From positions 62,001 to 126,000 of the forward strand of contig JAGCWX010000020.1 of assembly GCA_017961585.1 (NCBI GenBank): a stretch of DNA of 64,000 nt. The letters are read 5' to 3'. A program made the translations under genes and the position numbers. The notes below the pieces were generated by a model. That model saw only the letters and a program-made list of their open reading frames with translations, did no database searches and had not been told where the DNA came from. This document shows positions 1-18,315 of this stretch, one piece after another. The DNA comes from Elusimicrobiaceae bacterium (GTDB lineage: Bacteria; Elusimicrobiota; Elusimicrobia; Elusimicrobiales; Elusimicrobiaceae). How positions within the stretch are numbered: position 1 is the stretch's first letter; every line of letters begins with the position of its first letter.

Positions 1-673
1 GGGCATAATCCTCACTTGCAAAATAACCGAGCCGGCTTATGAGATAGGAATTTATCTCTTTAGAATTAATAATAAAGTCCTCATATTCCTTAGACAACGA
101 TTTCCACGTTTCCATGGGCACTTCGTGCGTGAGGTAACCAAAACGTAACGAAGGTGGAGTAACTTCCATTTTCCGCCAAAGGTATCCCAAAGTTTCTCTG
201 GATTCTTTCCATGGGACACGATCACGCCATGAACCAATGAGATATCCTTTATCATAATCAAACCCTGTACGTTTAATGGCCAATTCCACATCCATTCCGC
301 TTTTGATAGCATCGGAACTGGCATAGGCAAGCGTACCAGAAGGCATAATGGAATGGCGCTTATTCGCACTTGAAGCCGACGTGGAAATAGCTACCCGCCG
401 TTCCAAATCCACCCCGGTTCTTTCCAGGAAAAAATTCCGTTTTTCGTTAGCATCCCAATTCAAATTTTCCAGCAATATAGGTTCACGTTTGGTTGAATTT
501 TTTAATTTATAAGATTTTTTGATTCTCCCAAAGGTTTTGCGAGGGGCTCTTGTTGTGTATGATTTTTTAAATTTAAACTTCCGAGGTTTGGGGAGCACGG
601 CTTCTGCATTTAACAAATTCCCACCTATCACCAAACACATCACGATTGCGAACCAACGGACGATTGTATGCAT
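1..673 (-). CDS. Secreted protein of unknown family, 3' end beyond window
   Basis: An open frame starts at the ATG ending at 673 and stays open to base 2 (224 codons), so the C-terminus lies outside the window. AGGAG at 682-686 sits seven bases before the ATG. Residues 1-25 form a clear signal peptide (MHTIVRWFAIVMC..., ending LLNAEA), followed by a basic stretch (PKPRKFKFKKSYTTRAPRK). The rest is mixed and polar, with the segment GYLIGSWRDRVPWKES; I do not recognise a family. It is divergent from the gene at 843, and the two share an intergenic region with two copies of an inverted-repeat motif. Export is well supported by the signal peptide; the function is unknown. Confidence 0.75.
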   Translation of the reverse strand, partial: MHTIVRWFAIVMCLVIGGNLLNAEAVLPKPRKFKFKKSYTTRAPRKTFGRIKKSYKLKNSTKREPILLENLNWDANEKRNFFLERTGVDLERRVAISTSASSANKRHSIMPSGTLAYASSDAIKSGMDVELAIKRTGFDYDKGYLIGSWRDRVPWKESRETLGYLWRKMEVTPPSLRFGYLTHEVPMETWKSLSKEYEDFIINSKEINSYLISRLGYFASEDYA

Positions 674-732: not shown

Positions 733-751
733 CCAGGGTCTAAAGGCCCAA
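733..751. promoter_or_regulatory. Putative operator, copy 1 (GGGTC-N4-GGCCC)
   Basis: CCAGGGTCTAAAGGCCCAA contains an imperfect inverted repeat with a 4-bp centre. A nearly identical copy (one base differs) lies at 7849-7867. Its centre is about -42 from the predicted start of the leftward gene, replacing the missing -35 box, which suggests an activator site. The regulator is unknown. Confidence 0.5.
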
Positions 752-756
752 CTGTG

Positions 757-775
757 TATAGGTCTTTTTACCTAT
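757..775. promoter_or_regulatory. Putative operator, copy 2 (AGGTC-N4-TACCT)
   Basis: TATAGGTCTTTTTACCTAT has the same architecture as the neighbouring 733-751 site: two 5-bp inverted arms around four bases. It lies 16 bp upstream of the -35 box of the rightward gene, with its centre about -61 from the predicted transcript start. Confidence 0.45.
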
Positions 776-791
776 TTAGCGTAATTTTTTA

Positions 792-820
792 TTGACAATG
801 CCCCTCGTAAACAATAAAAT
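792..820 (+). promoter_or_regulatory. Sigma-70 promoter for the DUF885-like gene
   Basis: TTGACA (792-797), a 17-bp spacer and TAAAAT (815-820). The predicted start near 827 excludes a GTG codon at 825 as translation start. Confidence 0.75.
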
Positions 821-842: not shown

Positions 843-2708
843 ATGAACAGGACTCGTGTACAAACTATGAATAAAAAATTATTGTGTTTTGTGCTTTTTG
901 TCTTGGGTTTGGCCAGTGTAGCCACAAAGGCCGATGCCCAATCAGGGTTAGAAGTGGGCAGTATCAACGCCATTTTGGAAGATAATTCCTTGCGCGACGC
1001 TGCCACCCGCTACGTATCCGTATTTTCTTATTTCTTTCCGGAAGAAGCTACCCGTTTAGGGTTTTCTGCCGGCAACAACTTGCTCAATGACCGCAGTGCC
1101 AATAGCGATGAACAAGCCCAACAGGCATTAGAAGCTGTGGTACGGGATTTGAACTTAATTGATATTTCCAATCTTTCCGAAAACAAGAAGGCCGAATATC
1201 ACCTGCTTAAGCAAACGGTGCAGAGCAATCTGTGGCAATTACAACAGAACCGCTTAACCAAAAACCCGCTTTATTATGCACAAGCCCTGGATGCCGTGTA
1301 TGATTTGTTGTTGGTTCCGCAAAGCAACTTACGCACCAAACGCCTCAATTTGCTGGGACGTGTTTCTGCGCTACCCCTGGTAGCACAGCAAGCCCAGGAA
1401 AACTTGGAAGATGTTTCCCCTCACTTGGCCCGGTTAGCCATGGAAAAGGCCTACTACGCCTATATTTCGTTTGACGAAGTAGCAAAATTAATTACCGAGG
1501 GGCCGGCTCTATCCAATGATTCCAATGATGCCCCCAAAGCAGAAGGTGCCGTTCAGAAGGCCAAAGTTGCCATCCGCCAATTATTTGACTTGTTTAAACA
1601 ACTTTCCCAACAAGAAAGTGCCACCCAGGATTTCCGTTTGGGAGAAGACGCTTATGCCCAAATGTTAAAAGACACTTACCAAATTACGGAAAAATCTTCC
1701 GCCCTAGGCAAAGCGCTGGAAAAACAATTTGATCAAGCTCAGCACGAATTGGCCACCGCACTGGAACCGTTTGCCTTATCCGCCGAGGACGAAGAAGTAA
1801 CCGTTGTAGAAGATTTGAACGAAATTCCCTTTATTCAACGTGCGCAAAAAGAAGTGGAAAAAGATGCCAAGCCCAAAAAAGCGCAAAAACCGGAATATGT
1901 TCCCCCCACCGCCAACCAATTTTATGCGGTGGCAACGCAATTGGAATCCCCCTTTACGTTGGATGATAAAATCAACGAAGAAATCAACAAACAGGCCACT
2001 GCCTTTATGACCCAGTTAGTAAAGGATAAAGTCCTCCCTTCCAAAATGGCGTTTAAAGTGCAACCCTTGCCGGCTTACTTTGCCTATCAACAGGCCTATA
2101 AGTTTTTACCGGCATATAACGTGTTCTTCTTGCGCGTACCTACCGGCAATGAACTTGCCAAAAAGGAAATGCTCAAACAAGATTTCAATGAGCCGGCCTA
2201 TAAACTGTTTATCAGCCAAGCGGTGGTGCCGGGAACCTATTACCAAAACAGCATTACCAAAAGCAACGTTAAACGTGTTTTTGGAACCCCGCTGTTGGCT
2301 AACGGATGGGAAACCTATGCGCTTAACGTAGCCAATAATCAGCACTATTTCTTGACGGATGAAGAACATTTGTTCTTTAGCTTTCAAAATTACTTGCGTG
2401 CCATTACGGCGTTGCTGGACAAACGCCTGCACACCCAAGAAATTACCTACGAAGAAGCCCAAAACTTCTTAGTGGAAAACAATGGCTTTACGCCCGAGCA
2501 AGCCCAACAGCTTTTGTTTAGCATTGTAGCCAATCCGGGGAAAGCCGTTAGCTATGTATTGGGTAACCAAGTGTGGGAGAAAGCCGCCGCCCCGTATCAA
2601 AAGAAATTTAAAAACCCCGGGCAGGTAACTACGCTGCTTTTACAAGCGGGCAATATCACCCCGGACGATTTAGCAGCCGAGCTTAAACAGCTATCCAAAA
2701 ACAAATAA
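843..2708 (+). CDS. Secreted DUF885 family protein lacking the metal-binding motif
   Basis: About 621 residues with an N-terminal signal peptide (KKLLCFVLFVLGLASV...ATKADA). The C-terminal half follows the DUF885 pattern, ending in the GW.TYAL, FTPEQAQ and NPGKAVSYVLGNQ segments. The family's conserved HExxPGHHLQ stretch reads QAVVPGTYYQ here (2217-2246), and the Glu of EGWALYAE is Asn. All presumed metal ligands are therefore replaced, while Pro-Gly and the surroundings are kept, which points to a pseudoenzyme rather than a frameshift. A GTG at 825 and an ATG at 867 are other possible starts; 843 was chosen because the promoter places the transcript start near 827 and GGAG lies at 827-830. 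DUF885 members are thought to be peptidases; a binding role is more likely here. Confidence 0.75.
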   Translation: MNRTRVQTMNKKLLCFVLFVLGLASVATKADAQSGLEVGSINAILEDNSLRDAATRYVSVFSYFFPEEATRLGFSAGNNLLNDRSANSDEQAQQALEAVVRDLNLIDISNLSENKKAEYHLLKQTVQSNLWQLQQNRLTKNPLYYAQALDAVYDLLLVPQSNLRTKRLNLLGRVSALPLVAQQAQENLEDVSPHLARLAMEKAYYAYISFDEVAKLITEGPALSNDSNDAPKAEGAVQKAKVAIRQLFDLFKQLSQQESATQDFRLGEDAYAQMLKDTYQITEKSSALGKALEKQFDQAQHELATALEPFALSAEDEEVTVVEDLNEIPFIQRAQKEVEKDAKPKKAQKPEYVPPTANQFYAVATQLESPFTLDDKINEEINKQATAFMTQLVKDKVLPSKMAFKVQPLPAYFAYQQAYKFLPAYNVFFLRVPTGNELAKKEMLKQDFNEPAYKLFISQAVVPGTYYQNSITKSNVKRVFGTPLLANGWETYALNVANNQHYFLTDEEHLFFSFQNYLRAITALLDKRLHTQEITYEEAQNFLVENNGFTPEQAQQLLFSIVANPGKAVSYVLGNQVWEKAAAPYQKKFKNPGQVTTLLLQAGNITPDDLAAELKQLSKNK

Positions 2709-3361: not shown

Positions 3362-3922
3362 CTATTCATCTTTACATGTAAAAGTTCCGCTGGTAGTCTC
3401 CATACCATACACTTCGCAACGGTTTTGGCCCGATGAATCTATACAAAGAAATCCGGCTCTATGGTAGTCTTGACGCACGGCAGCGTCGCTCATATATATA
3501 AACATGACGCCATCGTTATCCCCCCCCGTACGCACGGCACAAACTCCGTTCGTGTATCTGTAGTTCGCCCCGGTGGGTCCACCCGGAAAGATAGAATACC
3601 TAAAGTACTTGGTTTGAAACGAATAGTTTTTAGTACTTCCGCCCGTGAACGCTAACCCCAAATGAGCTAGTTTGGGCTGTTTTGCTGTCGGGCAGTAATT
3701 GCCTGACCCGGATTGATAGCCCAAAACGCAGCCCATATTGTCCATGGCCGCCAATTTGGCCTCTTGCAATTTAAGCATAATGGTGCGGGCCTCGGCCAGG
3801 TGGGAGCGCTCAATCGTTTTTTCGTACATGGGAACCGCCATCAATGTTAAAATAGTTACAATGATGACCGCCGTTAAAATTTCAGCTAATGTAAAACCGT
3901 GTTTTGTTCTAATAATCTGCAT
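3362..3922 (-). CDS. Type IV pilin-like protein (pseudopilin) 3
   Basis: 186 residues. The prepilin peptidase site G|FTLAE (HGFTLAEILTAVIIVTILT) is followed by the hydrophobic helix and PMYEKTIERSHLAEA, typical of PilE/GspG-type N-termini. The C-terminal part is variable with several Cys, probably in disulfides. The ATG at 3922 puts the cleavage site at residues 8-9 and overlaps the stop of the upstream pseudopilin by 14 bp. An in-frame start at 3979 would give an overlong leader. The G-rich run just before 3922 may serve as ribosome binding site. Third of three pseudopilins in one operon. Confidence 0.85.
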   Translation of the reverse strand: MQIIRTKHGFTLAEILTAVIIVTILTLMAVPMYEKTIERSHLAEARTIMLKLQEAKLAAMDNMGCVLGYQSGSGNYCPTAKQPKLAHLGLAFTGGSTKNYSFQTKYFRYSIFPGGPTGANYRYTNGVCAVRTGGDNDGVMFIYMSDAAVRQDYHRAGFLCIDSSGQNRCEVYGMETTSGTFTCKDE

Positions 3923-4445
3923 ATGCCCCCCCATAATTGTCAAAACCGTAAAGATCACACGCTTCGGCAATTTCCTCATCGGACAGTTGAATCCCGGAAA
4001 ACCCTCCGCACCTAATCCTGTAGTCGGAACGGTTCATTCGAAATTCCAAAGCCAAATAGGGATTCCTATTCTTATGAGAGTATACAAAGTCCCCACTCGG
4101 GTTTAAGTTATAATTAAATTCCTTGCATCGGATGACAATATCTTGTACTACACACCCCAACGTGCGTTGGGAAGAATCCTCACTTGCGCTATCGCCAAAC
4201 ATATCCATACGTGTAAACACGGCTTTATCCGGATGCGCGGCCGCAAAGTCCTTGAATGTTTTATAGCCATATACGGTAGCTAAGCGTTCACTAGAGTCCA
4301 CAATTGTACGCAACATGGCAATCGCCTCGGTAGCGCGGGCTTTTTGAATAGCCCGACGATATTGCGGCAGTGCCAACCCCAAGAGCAGCCCTACAATCAG
4401 TACCACGGTAAGCATTTCAGCTAATGTAAAACCCCTTCTGTTCAT
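3909..4445 (-). CDS. Type IV pilin-like protein (pseudopilin) 2
   Basis: 178 residues beginning MNRRGFTLAEMLTVVLIVGL, with a short basic leader, a prepilin peptidase site after Gly5 and Glu5 of the mature protein. The helix ends in LPQYRRAIQKARATEA, the block shared by all pseudopilins in this window. The C-terminal domain is unrelated in sequence to its neighbours and holds paired Cys. AGGAG precedes the ATG. It sits 9 bp downstream of pseudopilin 1 and overlaps pseudopilin 3. Confidence 0.85.
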   Translation of the reverse strand: MNRRGFTLAEMLTVVLIVGLLLGLALPQYRRAIQKARATEAIAMLRTIVDSSERLATVYGYKTFKDFAAAHPDKAVFTRMDMFGDSASEDSSQRTLGCVVQDIVIRCKEFNYNLNPSGDFVYSHKNRNPYLALEFRMNRSDYRIRCGGFSGIQLSDEEIAEACDLYGFDNYGGAYADY

Positions 4446-4454
4446 AAAAATCTC

Positions 4455-4967
4455 CTATTGACATCCCATCGCAAATTCACCAACATTTAGAATATCACAA
4501 AGATCGCCGGCATCACCATCTTGGCAGGACAAATGATCCCCGCGATAATAAACAACGACATCGTCATACCGGGTTCCTCCCCAGCGGGGTTTGGCCCCCA
4601 CACACGGCTGCCAAGAGGTACTGGGCTTGCCCAAATGCAAGTAATACTCCCAGTATGGGGTTGTTAATTTATTATTGGACAAAGTATTCAGATCCGTGGT
4701 TATGGTGCCTTTTGCTTCTATATCCAGTTTACCGAAGGTCATTTTGCTGTCATCGGCACAAGTATATCCATCGTCGGTCCATCTACATCCGTGTTCAATC
4801 ATCCACCGTTCGCGCGCCTCAAAAATAGCCGGCAGCAACTGAGCGGCCTCGGCCGCTTTGGCCCGATCAAGCGACTTGCGGTACTGCGGCATAGCCACCG
4901 CCGTCAAAACGCTTATAATCATGACCACTACCAATAGTTCAATTAATGTAAACCCCGTGTGTTGCAT
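4455..4967 (-). CDS. Type IV pilin-like protein (pseudopilin) 1
   Basis: 170 residues from the ATG at 4967, preceded by AGGAG with good spacing; an upstream in-frame ATG (5006) lacks a site. MQHTGFTLIELLVVVMIISV is a canonical class III signal with cleavage after Gly5. The helix ends MPQYRKSLDRAKAAEA. The C-terminal region carries several Cys (GCRWTDDGYTC, SCQDGDAGDLC). First gene of a four-gene leftward operon; no pilus ATPase, platform protein or prepilin peptidase lies nearby, so assembly genes must be elsewhere. Confidence 0.85.
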   Translation of the reverse strand: MQHTGFTLIELLVVVMIISVLTAVAMPQYRKSLDRAKAAEAAQLLPAIFEARERWMIEHGCRWTDDGYTCADDSKMTFGKLDIEAKGTITTDLNTLSNNKLTTPYWEYYLHLGKPSTSWQPCVGAKPRWGGTRYDDVVVYYRGDHLSCQDGDAGDLCDILNVGEFAMGCQ

Positions 4968-5016
4968 ACAATCTCCTACTAATAAGTATAATACTTTTTT
5001 ACACAATTACAATACC

Positions 5017-6730: not shown

Positions 6731-7789
6731 TTAATTATATTTTTCCTGCGCTTGTTTGATCAGATTCACGATCGCGGAGGTAATTCTTAATCCTCCGTTG
6801 GGACACATTGAAGGAGTTTTTTTGTCAAAAACTGTCACGGCAACAATGTATCTGTTATCTCTTGTTTGTATAATGGGCCCACCGCTATTGCCACCTACAG
6901 TGTCAGCATTATGCCGGATAAATTCCCGTTCCACAGCACATATTTTGCCAAAGGAAGCCCACAACGAGTTGTCCGGTTTGTCGGCTCCACGTCCTAATGT
7001 TATTATGAAAGATTCATCCATTTCTCCGTTGGAAGGTACACGTACGCCCAACCAGCCCGTTTGCTTGCCGATATTTTTATCCAGCACCACAATTCCATAA
7101 TCATACGCAAATCCTTTCAAATTGTCCGCATTCCCGCTATTGGCCTGCCTCTGATATTCCCGCGGAACAAGTAAATTCTTGGATTTAGCCGTTACAAAAC
7201 CATCCTGTTGTTGAGCTGCTTGTTGTTGCTCTTTTTCTGCCACAACGCGCGTTAAAGCTACTAGAGGAAGAGGAGAAACAAACGTGTCCGACGGTTTTTT
7301 CATTTCACGGTTGGCATCCTTGCGCCGATGACGGATGGGCGTGGATTGTTGCATAGGAAGCCCAACCGCCCGAACCGTTACGGACTCTGCAAACCGCATA
7401 CCCATATGACCTAAATCATTATAAAGACAATGTCCCGCCGTTAATACTAAATTTTTCCCCACCATTGTTCCAGAACAGATGGATTTTTTGTTACCGGAAA
7501 ATTGCATTTCCAGCACTACTGCCGGTTTGTAGGAGCTGGGAGCTCTACCCGTAATTTCCACACGGCCATCCGGCCCTACAATTTGTTTAGTATACCCGGC
7601 GGTTAGGAACGAATTTCCTTGCAGGGTTTCACTCGGTTCCAATTCCAGCGCTATCCCCGGCTGCATGACATGTGTCGTTTCTTCACCGGTGATCATATCA
7701 TAAGAAACCCATGCAGGTTCCTCAGCAACAATCGGACTGACTGCAAATAAAAACAAAATCAACAAACTAGATATATGTTTTATGCCCAT
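6731..7789 (-). CDS. Secreted trypsin-like (S1 family) serine protease
   Basis: 352 residues with a signal peptide (SSLLILFLFAVSPIVAE). After a region of roughly 70 residues that may be a propeptide come the three catalytic blocks: His in VLTAGHC, Asp in FAYDYGIVVLD and Ser in TVGGNSGGP. Between His and Asp there is a long polar insert with a Gln-rich stretch (EKEQQQAAQQQ). Overall it resembles the GluV8/trypsin branch of secreted bacterial endopeptidases. The ATG at 7789 has AAAGGA upstream; an in-frame start at 7813 does not. The promoter carries an upstream inverted repeat that is also found at two other secreted-protein genes. Substrate unknown. Confidence 0.85.
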   Translation of the reverse strand: MGIKHISSLLILFLFAVSPIVAEEPAWVSYDMITGEETTHVMQPGIALELEPSETLQGNSFLTAGYTKQIVGPDGRVEITGRAPSSYKPAVVLEMQFSGNKKSICSGTMVGKNLVLTAGHCLYNDLGHMGMRFAESVTVRAVGLPMQQSTPIRHRRKDANREMKKPSDTFVSPLPLVALTRVVAEKEQQQAAQQQDGFVTAKSKNLLVPREYQRQANSGNADNLKGFAYDYGIVVLDKNIGKQTGWLGVRVPSNGEMDESFIITLGRGADKPDNSLWASFGKICAVEREFIRHNADTVGGNSGGPIIQTRDNRYIVAVTVFDKKTPSMCPNGGLRITSAIVNLIKQAQEKYN

Positions 7790-7822
7790 AGTTTTTCCTT
7801 TTTTAAAATTCACTGTATTTTT

Positions 7823-7848: not shown

Positions 7849-7890
7849 CCAGGGTCAAAAGGCCCAAATATAACCTAGGCCCAAATATAA
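7849..7890. promoter_or_regulatory. Putative operator, copy 3, with adjacent half site
   Basis: CCAGGGTCAAAAGGCCCAA (7849-7867) differs at one position from 733-751 and is centred near -42 of the protease promoter. A second GGCCCAAATATAA block (7878-7890) repeats its outer half plus flank, giving a direct repeat 17 bp apart. Confidence 0.5.
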
Positions 7891-15843: not shown

Positions 15844-18315
15844 CTATTTGCGTTTTTTGATAGCCGTACGCTTGCCGCCTTTTTTGACGGCTTTTTTTAC
15901 CGCTTTTTTAGCCGGCTTTTGGGCCTTTTTGGGGGCGGATTTTTTAGAGGGCTTTGCGCCTTTTTTTAATTTGGCCGCAAATTCTTTCCACCCTTCCAGG
16001 GCCAAGGGGAGCACTTCATCCATGTGTTTAACGGGGATGAGCGTAAGCTCTTTGCGCACGCGGGCGGGCAATTCGCTCACGTCTTTTTGATTGGTGTGCG
16101 GGTAGAGAATGGTTTTCACGCCTTCGCGGTACGCGGCCAGGAATTTTTCTTTAATTCCCCCCACCGGCAAAATGCGCCCGGTGATGGTTACTTCGCCCGT
16201 CATAGCCAGTTTCTTTTTAACCGGCAGCCCCGTAAGCAAACTGGTCAGCGCGGTGGTGATTACGCCGCCGGCGGACGGGCCGTCCTTGGGGATGGCTCCT
16301 TCGGGGAAGTGGATGTGAAAGTCGGTCTTGTCAAACGCAAGGTCTTGACCGTAGCCGCGGCTTTGCGCGTAGGTAAGCGCGGCGCGCACGGATTCTTTCA
16401 TCACGTCGCCCAGCATACCGGTTAAAATGAGCGCGCCCTTGCCGGGCAATTTGGTAGCTTCAATGGTCAGCGTTTCGCCGCCCACGCTCGTCCACGCCAG
16501 GCCGGTAGCAATGCCCACGCCGTTGTCTTCCGTAGCGAAGTTGGAATACTTGGGCACGCCTAAAAACTCGTGCAAGTTTTTCTTGGTGACCACGATTTTC
16601 TTTTTGCCTTCCACCAATTGTTTGGCAGCTTTGCGGCACAAAGAGCCCACTTCGCGTTCCAAATTGCGCACGCCGGCTTCGCGCACGTAGTCACGCATCA
16701 GCAGGGCCACCGCGTCGCGGTCAATTTTGAGCTGGCCGGGTTTTAACCCGTGCAATTTCATTTGCTTGGGGAGCAAATAGTGATCCACAATGTCGTGCTT
16801 TTCGTACTCGGTATATCCGTCAAAATGGATAATTTCCAGGCGGTCACGCAACGTAACCGGGATGGACGCGAGCGAGTTGGCCGTAGTAATAAACATTACC
16901 TTGGATACGTCAAACGGCACGTCCAAAAAGTGGTCGGTAAATTCTTTGTTTTGCTCGGGATCTAACAGTTCCAAAAGAGCCGCTGCCGGGTCGCCGCGCC
17001 AGTCGGACCCCATTTTGTCAATTTCGTCCAACAGGAAAACTGGGTTGGAGCTTTTGGCTTTGCTGATGCCTTGGATGATGCGCCCGGGCATAGAGCCGAT
17101 ATACGTGCGGCGATGACCGCGGATTTCGCTCTCGTCGCGCACGCCGCCTAAACTCATACGCACAAACTTGCGCCCGATCGCCCGCGCAATGGATTTGGCA
17201 AGCGACGTCTTCCCCACCCCCGGCGCACCGGTAAAGCACAGCACCGGCCCGCGCAGAGAATTGGTTAATTTGTTAACGGCTAAATATTCCAGCACGCGCT
17301 CTTTGGGTTTTTCCAGACCAAAGTGGTCTTCATCTAGCACTTGGCGGGCACGTTTCAAGTCCAGCACGTCGGGCGTGGTAATGTTCCAGGGCATATTGAG
17401 CAACCAATCCAAATAGGTGCGTGCCACCGTTGCTTCCGGCGAAAAGGGCTGCATTTTAGCCAAACGGTCAATCTCTTTTTTGGCTTCCTGCGCGGCGTGC
17501 GGCGGTAGACCGTTTTTCTTAATTTTGGCACGCATATCGTCTAGCTCTTTTTGGAAATCATCCTTTTGACTTAATTCCTTTTGGATGGCTTTCATTTGCT
17601 CGTTAAGGTAATATTCTTTTTGGTTTTTTTCCATTTGCGCGCGCACTTTGTTTTGAATTTTGTTTTCCAATTCGGAAATTTCCAATTCGGACGCGACTAA
17701 TTTGAGCACTTTTTCTAACCGTTTGGAAAGGTCCACTTCTTCCAAAATGGCTTGGCGTTGCTCGGTCTTTACGAGCATATTGGAAGCAATGGTGTCAGCC
17801 AGTTTGGAAGGGTCGCTAATTTGGCGCAGGAAGGAAACCCCCTCCACCGCCACCCGGTGCGAACGGCGGGCGTATTTATCAAATTCGTCAAGCACGCGGC
17901 GCATAAGGGCCTGTACCACGGGGGTATTGTCTTCGGGCTCCTCAATATATTCCACTTGGGCAAACCAGGCATTGTGGGAAGGATTTACCTCTAATTTATG
18001 TACACGCGCGCGTGCCAATCCTTGTAAAAATACTTTCAGTGAACCGTTGGGCATCCGCAAATTTTGCGTGATTTGGCAAATCACACCGAAGTGATATAAA
18101 TCGGCCTCTTTGGGTTCGTCCATTTCGGCATCTTTTTGAGAAATAGCCAAAATATAATTACCCGGCTGCAAAAGTGCAAAATTAACTGCAGCGATGGATT
18201 TTTCGCGATCTACTGAGAGGGGCAAATTCATCCCCGGGAACATGACTACGTCGCGGATAGCTACCGCAGGCACCACATTGGGCAGAGAAAGCGTCGTTTT
18301 CTTGATTTCTTCCAT
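15844..18315 (-). CDS. lon: ATP-dependent Lon protease with histone-like C-terminal tail
   Basis: 823 residues. N-terminal substrate-binding domain (residues 12-210), coiled-coil region, then the AAA+ module with Walker A GAPGVGKTS and Walker B VFLLDEIDK. The proteolytic domain has the catalytic Ser in PKDGPSAGG (about 681) and Lys in GGIKEK (about 722). It degrades misfolded and regulatory proteins. Residues 784-823 form an extra tail of almost only Lys, Ala and Pro (KPAKKAVKKAVKKGGKR), not present in standard Lon and reminiscent of histone H1; DNA or RNA binding is an inference. GGGGGA precedes the ATG. Promoter is strong and I see no CIRCE element. Confidence 0.95.
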   Translation of the reverse strand: MEEIKKTTLSLPNVVPAVAIRDVVMFPGMNLPLSVDREKSIAAVNFALLQPGNYILAISQKDAEMDEPKEADLYHFGVICQITQNLRMPNGSLKVFLQGLARARVHKLEVNPSHNAWFAQVEYIEEPEDNTPVVQALMRRVLDEFDKYARRSHRVAVEGVSFLRQISDPSKLADTIASNMLVKTEQRQAILEEVDLSKRLEKVLKLVASELEISELENKIQNKVRAQMEKNQKEYYLNEQMKAIQKELSQKDDFQKELDDMRAKIKKNGLPPHAAQEAKKEIDRLAKMQPFSPEATVARTYLDWLLNMPWNITTPDVLDLKRARQVLDEDHFGLEKPKERVLEYLAVNKLTNSLRGPVLCFTGAPGVGKTSLAKSIARAIGRKFVRMSLGGVRDESEIRGHRRTYIGSMPGRIIQGISKAKSSNPVFLLDEIDKMGSDWRGDPAAALLELLDPEQNKEFTDHFLDVPFDVSKVMFITTANSLASIPVTLRDRLEIIHFDGYTEYEKHDIVDHYLLPKQMKLHGLKPGQLKIDRDAVALLMRDYVREAGVRNLEREVGSLCRKAAKQLVEGKKKIVVTKKNLHEFLGVPKYSNFATEDNGVGIATGLAWTSVGGETLTIEATKLPGKGALILTGMLGDVMKESVRAALTYAQSRGYGQDLAFDKTDFHIHFPEGAIPKDGPSAGGVITTALTSLLTGLPVKKKLAMTGEVTITGRILPVGGIKEKFLAAYREGVKTILYPHTNQKDVSELPARVRKELTLIPVKHMDEVLPLALEGWKEFAAKLKKGAKPSKKSAPKKAQKPAKKAVKKAVKKGGKRTAIKKRK

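What the first reader, a model, noticed from the sequence alone, without database searches (positions are those of the whole stretch)
843..2708. DUF885 protein whose metal-binding motif is erased
HExxPGHHLQ is replaced by QAVVPGTYYQ at 2217-2246 and the downstream Glu of EGWALYAE by Asn, yet the frame is intact over 620 codons with a signal peptide and strong promoter. Loss of every ligand with retention of the fold suggests repurposing, perhaps as a peptide-binding protein, and it sits under the same putative operator as a real secreted protease.
Basis: partly seen in the sequence, partly recalled or inferred. Interest (0 to 1): 0.5.

Follow-up and report, generated by a model that had tools for sequence, protein, structure and literature searches.

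The report
Order-wide dead secreted peptidase
A secreted bacterial protein keeps the fold of a zinc peptidase but has lost all its metal-holding residues, and its relatives across a whole order of bacteria share that loss, so it probably binds something rather than cutting it.

Summary
The frame at 843-2708 is a DUF885 protein (PF05960, E 8.6e-34) in which H459, E460, H465 and E487 of the HExxPGH...EGW site read Q, A, T and N. The loss is not a local event. In 135 dead-clade sequences from the window's order, none has HExxPGH and none has the EGW Glu; it is Asn in 119 of 133. The dead forms are one clade (100/97) apart from 14 live ones. They sit at one per genome and are under purifying selection (dN/dS 0.035-0.19 in close pairs). 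The AlphaFold model keeps the DUF885 fold (Z 27-29). Constraint has spread from the active site over the whole body. In the sister family the gene lies in a fixed tig-clpP-lon-DUF885-ABC run (13 of 13 loci); in the window's own family, tig is the divergent neighbour in 16 of 18. The dyad itself is real and marks a separate set of mostly secreted-protein genes. Best reading: an ancient exported pseudopeptidase that binds peptide or protein without cutting it. The ligand is unknown.

The parts
843..2708 (+). DUF885 pseudopeptidase gene, 621 aa if started at 843; relatives start at the ATG at 867
867..941 (+). probable Sec signal peptide MNKKLLCFVLFVLGLASVATKADAQ
   Evidence: read from sequence and a crude predictor; no SignalP available
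2217..2246 (+). erased HExxPGHHLQ site: QAVVPGTYYQ, residues 459-468
2301..2309 (+). NGW in place of EGW (third metal ligand Glu to Asn487)
792..820 (+). own sigma-70-type promoter TTGACA-17-TAAAAT of DUF885
   Evidence: same promoter upstream of DUF885 in G060, G054, G017, G058, G039, G009, G003
737..748 (-). dyad GGCCTTTAGACC, proximal site of the divergent gene's promoter
761..772 (.). second dyad GGTCTTTTTACC, 24 bp from the first
1..673 (-). divergent gene (523 aa, runs out of the window): signal peptide and a weak receiver-like stretch; the likely target of the dyads
6731..7813 (-). secreted trypsin-like protease with its own dyad at 7853-7864
15994..16590 (-). Lon C-terminal domain; Lon is not next to DUF885 in this genome
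   Evidence: G000:C5:77994-78590

Best explanation
This is a metal-free DUF885 pseudopeptidase. It was made non-catalytic once, in or before the common ancestor of its order, and has been inherited vertically, one copy per genome, ever since. It is exported by a signal peptide and expressed from its own sigma-70-type promoter. It most likely works as a binding protein: the clam-shell helical fold of the M2/M3/M32-like peptidases holds a peptide or unfolded stretch of protein without hydrolysing it, as a holdase, scaffold or receptor in the periplasm or outside the cell. Shown here: the loss of ligands, the single clade, the kept fold, purifying selection, and the linkage with trigger factor (and, in the sister family, with ClpP, Lon and an ABC ATPase-permease pair). 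Inferred: export, absence of metal, and binding as the function.
For: All four residues are lost in the window protein, and 0 of 135 dead-clade rows have HExxPGH; of 132 rows with all six motif columns filled, 101 keep none of the four residues, 29 keep one and 2 keep two. Dead rows (44) split from live rows (14) with 100/97 support, motif columns left out, and the sister family is a clade at 100/100. 135 of 149 genomes of the order hold a DUF885. dN/dS lies between 0.035 and 0.19 in the 29 printed close pairs that gave a value. AlphaFold mean pLDDT 88, pTM 0.85; PDB DUF885 structures 3u24, 3o0y and 3iuk at Z 29.1, 28.9 and 27.4, with M3 and M32 peptidases next at about 14. Live proteins are more conserved in the C-terminal half than the N-terminal half (32/247 against 8/257 columns at 85% or more; mean information 2.72 in the active-site core); dead ones are flat (15/259 against 20/261; core 2.21). 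Residues E67, R84, Y145, D226 and P433 are near-invariant in the dead clade and not conserved in live ones. Gene order.
Against: No ligand, partner or expression datum is in hand. Export rests on a signal-peptide-like N terminus judged by eye and a crude script. The window's protein has lost further residues that the sister family keeps (E494, R522, R582, H596), so the old cleft is partly eroded here. Fourteen of 149 genomes of the order lack a match (some are incomplete), so it seems dispensable at least in some.
Confidence: 0.6

Rival explanations
1. It is a subunit or regulator of an active enzyme or transporter: in the ancestral gene order it would work with the ABC ATPase and permease encoded just downstream, or regulate a peptidase.
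For: In 13 of 13 sister-family loci DUF885 is followed on the same strand by the ABC ATPase with a gap of 15-154 bases, then the permease and a third gene; G069 of the window's family has the same run. The ATPase's best NCBIfam match is GldA, far below its cut-off (164 against 402.6 bits).
Against: In the other 18 loci of the window's family the ABC ATPase is absent from the fetched stretch or more than 5 kb away, yet DUF885 is kept. The window genome has no live DUF885 partner.
Confidence: 0.2
2. It has gained a new catalytic activity that needs no zinc, using residues fixed only in the dead clade.
For: E67, R84, Y145, D226 and P433 are near-invariant in the dead clade and not in live proteins; Asn487 is the commonest residue at the lost Glu.
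Against: No recognisable new catalytic motif; constraint is spread evenly over the protein rather than focused in a pocket.
Confidence: 0.12
3. It still binds a metal and hydrolyses through other residues.
For: Two of 132 dead rows keep two of the four residues, and His466 next to the lost ligand is invariant in the 16 sister-family rows compared.
Against: The window protein keeps none of the four and has no alternative HExxH-type motif.
Confidence: 0.05
4. It is a decaying relic, kept only by chance.
For: The window protein is among the more derived members and has lost second-shell residues; nine of 90 genomes of the window's family lack a match.
Against: Open frames of about 600 codons across the order, dN/dS of 0.035-0.19 in close pairs, and conserved promoter and neighbours. 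A relic would not last an order's divergence.
Confidence: 0.03

Closest known systems
DUF885 proteins of solved structure (3u24 Shewanella oneidensis, 3o0y Colwellia psychrerythraea, 3iuk Arthrobacter aurescens)
   Same: same fold over about 505-524 residues at Z 27-29, same family profile, two of the three described as lipoproteins
   Different: 3u24, 3o0y and 3iuk carry the live HExxPGH and EGW in the printed alignments; the window protein carries none of these ligands
M2, M3 and M32 peptidases (ACE, oligoendopeptidase F, carboxypeptidase Taq type)
   Same: same overall helical fold at Z about 10-14
   Different: 6-12% identity in the listed rows; these use HExxH plus a Glu (recalled), all absent here
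ACN-1 of Caenorhabditis elegans
   Same: an ACE relative that lacks zinc-ligand histidines yet is needed for moulting; proposed to bind or sequester its substrate (passages of PMC9518657 and PMC4769152 seen)
   Different: animal protein of the ACE family; no direct sequence comparison was made here
Inactive metallopeptidase homologues in general
   Same: loss of catalysis with retention of fold and a binding or scaffolding role (start of the abstract of PMC11266112 seen)
   Different: a word search of that review's main text finds no mention of DUF885

Membership tests
DUF885 sequence family (PF05960) | profile match above the curated cut-off | tested here: met
   118.5 bits against 32.4, residues 66-589
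DUF885 sequence family (PF05960) | DUF885 fold | tested here: met
   model pLDDT 88, best PDB matches are the three DUF885 structures
DUF885 zinc peptidase (Peptidase_MA type) | HExxPGH metal and catalytic site | tested here: not met
   QAVVPGT at the aligned place; live rows 14 of 14 have it
DUF885 zinc peptidase (Peptidase_MA type) | third ligand Glu in EGW | tested here: not met
   Asn487; 0 of 133 dead rows with that column keep Glu
DUF885 zinc peptidase (Peptidase_MA type) | metal binding and peptidase activity | not testable with these tools
   needs protein
Pseudopeptidase | homologue of a peptidase without catalytic residues, under purifying selection | tested here: met
Pseudopeptidase | non-catalytic binding or scaffolding function | not testable with these tools
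   no ligand or partner known
Dyad-regulated secreted-protein gene set | dyad oriented toward the gene, about 20 bp before a -10 box, kept in orthologues | tested here: not met
   dyad faces the divergent gene; 1 of 78 DUF885 upstream regions has it

The most novel reading that the evidence does not exclude
An order of bacteria converted its DUF885 peptidase, once, into an exported peptide- or client-binding protein that forms the outer arm of a proteostasis gene cluster (tig-clpP-lon-DUF885-ABC transporter): the dead enzyme would hold misfolded or exported chains outside, while the cytosolic chaperone and proteases of the same cluster handle them inside, with or without the ABC pair.
Probability: 0.22. 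Interest if true: 0.75.

Novelty: new variant of a known kind. Interest (0 to 1): 0.5.

Why it matters
It gives a clear case of a bacterial peptidase family converted once into a non-catalytic protein and then kept across a whole order, with live relatives outside it for comparison and a gene neighbourhood that points to protein quality control. None of the 12 papers listed for 'DUF885' (13 held the term) or the one for 'PF05960' has the family in its title, so a binding-only member with conserved neighbours offers an unusual handle on what the fold recognises.

Tried and rejected
Rejected: DUF885 under the protease's operator. Rejected: a hidden HExxH elsewhere (one of 135 dead rows, L131_G120, has a lone HEALNH). 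Rejected: recent or strain-specific loss. Rejected: relic under drift.

No NCBIfam model matched P0001 or three relatives. A broad alignment (A2) had no stretch conserved enough for the collection scan, so the closer alignment A1 was used; it returned 38 loci, all from records titled Elusimicrobiaceae, Elusimicrobium, Elusimicrobiales, Elusimicrobia or 'uncultured bacterium'; its patterns were built from the window's genus, so dead members in other phyla are not excluded.

Weak points: the tree joins two long live branches directly and several rows have odd composition; it was not rebuilt without them. The signal-peptide predictor is a home-made rule; 7 of 35 dyad clusters did not pass it, at least two of which look like signal peptides by eye. 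The background of 14 of 53 comes from one 64-kb window. A first dyad pattern with a leading A found nothing in the window (0 against 1.8 expected), and a looser two-mismatch pattern was no more frequent than chance (20 against 23); the enrichment holds for GGYCTTTTKACC in the window (6 against 1.8) and GGYCNNAAGRCC in the genome, patterns shaped after seeing the sites. The dN/dS frames run stop to stop and include short leader stretches. Neighbour loci of live copies were short, so the lack of tig, clpP or lon there is a weak negative. Papers: of 500 that held two of three terms, the five shown list nothing on this motif; one search found one paper with Elusimicrobi and pseudoenzyme, on gene duplication.

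Full report
Observation. The frame 825-2708 is open. Read from 843 it gives 621 residues with QAVVPGTYYQ at 2217-2246 and NGW at 2301-2309. The protein is a clear PF05960 member (8.6e-34) and the only one found in its genome of 1.49 Mb. Relatives start at the MNKK that lies at 867 here, so the true start may be there; either start leaves a signal-peptide-like N terminus ending near ADAQ.

The site. Fourteen live DUF885 proteins (eight from Elusimicrobiota-phylum genomes and the single second copy in the order, six from named plasmid records) all have HExxPGH and EGW. The solved structures 3u24, 3o0y and 3iuk show the same motif in their printed alignments. Against these, the window protein has H459Q, E460A, H465T and E487N and no HExxH-like motif elsewhere.

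How far the loss reaches. PF05960 was found in 81 of 90 genomes of the window's family, 135 of 149 of the order and 60 of 149 drawn from the phylum. I extracted 81 rows of the window's family and 54 dead rows of the sister family, 135 in all. None has HExxPGH. Of 132 rows with all six motif columns filled, 101 keep none of H, E, H, E; 29 keep one; 2 keep two. The EGW Glu is absent from all 133 rows that have the column, and is Asn in 119. The only live form seen in the order is a second copy in G099. The window's genus often reads ELVPGRYYQ...NGW, the sister family mostly AYxxMPGxHLRS...NGW. Names came from a collection scan: 38 loci, many titled Elusimicrobiaceae or Elusimicrobium, several from rumen, rectum or faeces.

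One ancient event. A maximum-likelihood tree of 58 rows, motif columns left out, puts the 14 live rows on one side of a branch (100/97) and the sister family in one clade (100/100). The window's family falls short of a clade only because G069 branches apart. The simplest account is one loss in or before the order's ancestor. Cautions: two long live branches meet, and several rows have odd composition.

Selection and constraint. Close pairs give dN/dS of 0.035-0.19 (29 values among the first 30 pairs printed of 263). Live proteins concentrate conservation in the catalytic half (32/247 columns against 8/257) and most of all in the active-site core; dead ones do not (15/259 against 20/261). E67, R84, Y145, D226 and P433 are near-invariant in the dead clade but not in live ones. 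The sister family still keeps H466, E494, R519, R522, D526, H530 and H596 beside the lost ligands; the window protein has lost E494, R522 and H596 and keeps R519, D526 and H530.

Structure. Foldseek's five matches under 1e-3 are all DUF885 chains. VIA-align gives Z 29.1 (3u24, rmsd 4.6, 523 residues), 28.9 (3o0y, 3.4, 524) and 27.4 (3iuk, 4.3, 505), then M3 and M32 peptidases at about 14 and ACE at about 12. The fold is kept; the cleft itself was not measured.

Neighbourhood. I fetched surroundings for 32 of the 135 genomes. In all 13 sister-family loci the order on one strand is tig-clpP-lon-DUF885-ABC ATPase-permease-third gene; lon matches end 54-353 bases before DUF885, and the ATPase match follows at 15-154 bases (families). 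G069 of the window's family has clpP-lon-DUF885-ABC-permease-third gene on an 11.7-kb contig. In the other 18 loci of the window's family, tig is on the opposite strand in 16, within 520 bases in 14; in the window genome (1991 bases) and G012 (1487) a gene lies between. In the window genome Lon lies at 15994-16590. Live copies showed no tig, clpP or lon match in their short fetched stretches.

The operator claim. The dyads at 737-748 and 761-772 are real: GGYCNNAAGRCC occurs 50 times (strand-counted) in the genome against 7 for the reversed control. Read toward their genes, sites share a layout: a dyad, a second dyad 24 bp on, often ending in ACCCTGG, then about 20 bp to a -10-like box. At 737-772 this layout is on the minus strand and faces the divergent gene at 1-673. 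DUF885 instead has TTGACA-17-TAAAAT, which recurs upstream of DUF885 in seven close relatives that lack the dyad; 1 of 78 upstream regions, the window's own, has a strict dyad. So the protease at 6731-7813 has such a site, but DUF885 most likely does not use it.

The dyad set. Of 41 site clusters examined, 35 have a gene start 15-160 bp away, and in 28 that gene has a signal peptide by a crude rule, against 14 of 53 window genes (Fisher p 9e-7). The strict 16-base form occurs in 45 of 61 genomes of the genus with no control match in any. This looks like a promoter class for exported proteins and deserves its own study.

Judgement. Shown: a non-catalytic site, a kept fold, a single old clade, purifying selection and conserved neighbours. 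Inferred: export, no metal, and a binding role. What it works like: inactive members of the ACE-type fold such as ACN-1, for which binding or sequestering of substrate has been proposed. What it is: a PF05960 member by sequence and fold, but not a zinc peptidase.

Noticed in passing
window 737-772 and 7853-7864; L241, L242, L249-L284: Paired dyads (GGYC-N4-GRCC type, 24 bp apart, often ending ACCCTGG about 20 bp before a -10-like box) upstream of mostly signal-peptide genes; 50 strand-counted hits against 7 in control, and the strict form in 45 of 61 genomes of the genus.
   Followed up: partly
window 1-673 (-), L164:8106-9674: The divergent 523-aa gene has a signal peptide and a weak response-regulator receiver match (24.7 bits, below the cut-off of 30.2), an odd combination.
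   Followed up: no
L162 (G186:C5:32300-35300): A live DUF885 domain lies inside an open frame of 17755 codons.
   Followed up: no
window 3362-5006 (-): Three pilin-like genes in a row (N-terminal GFTLxE motifs) downstream of DUF885; the cluster recurs beside DUF885 in several relatives.
   Followed up: no
L156 (G099): The one genome of the order seen with a second, live DUF885 (HEALPGH, EGW) besides the dead one.
   Followed up: partly
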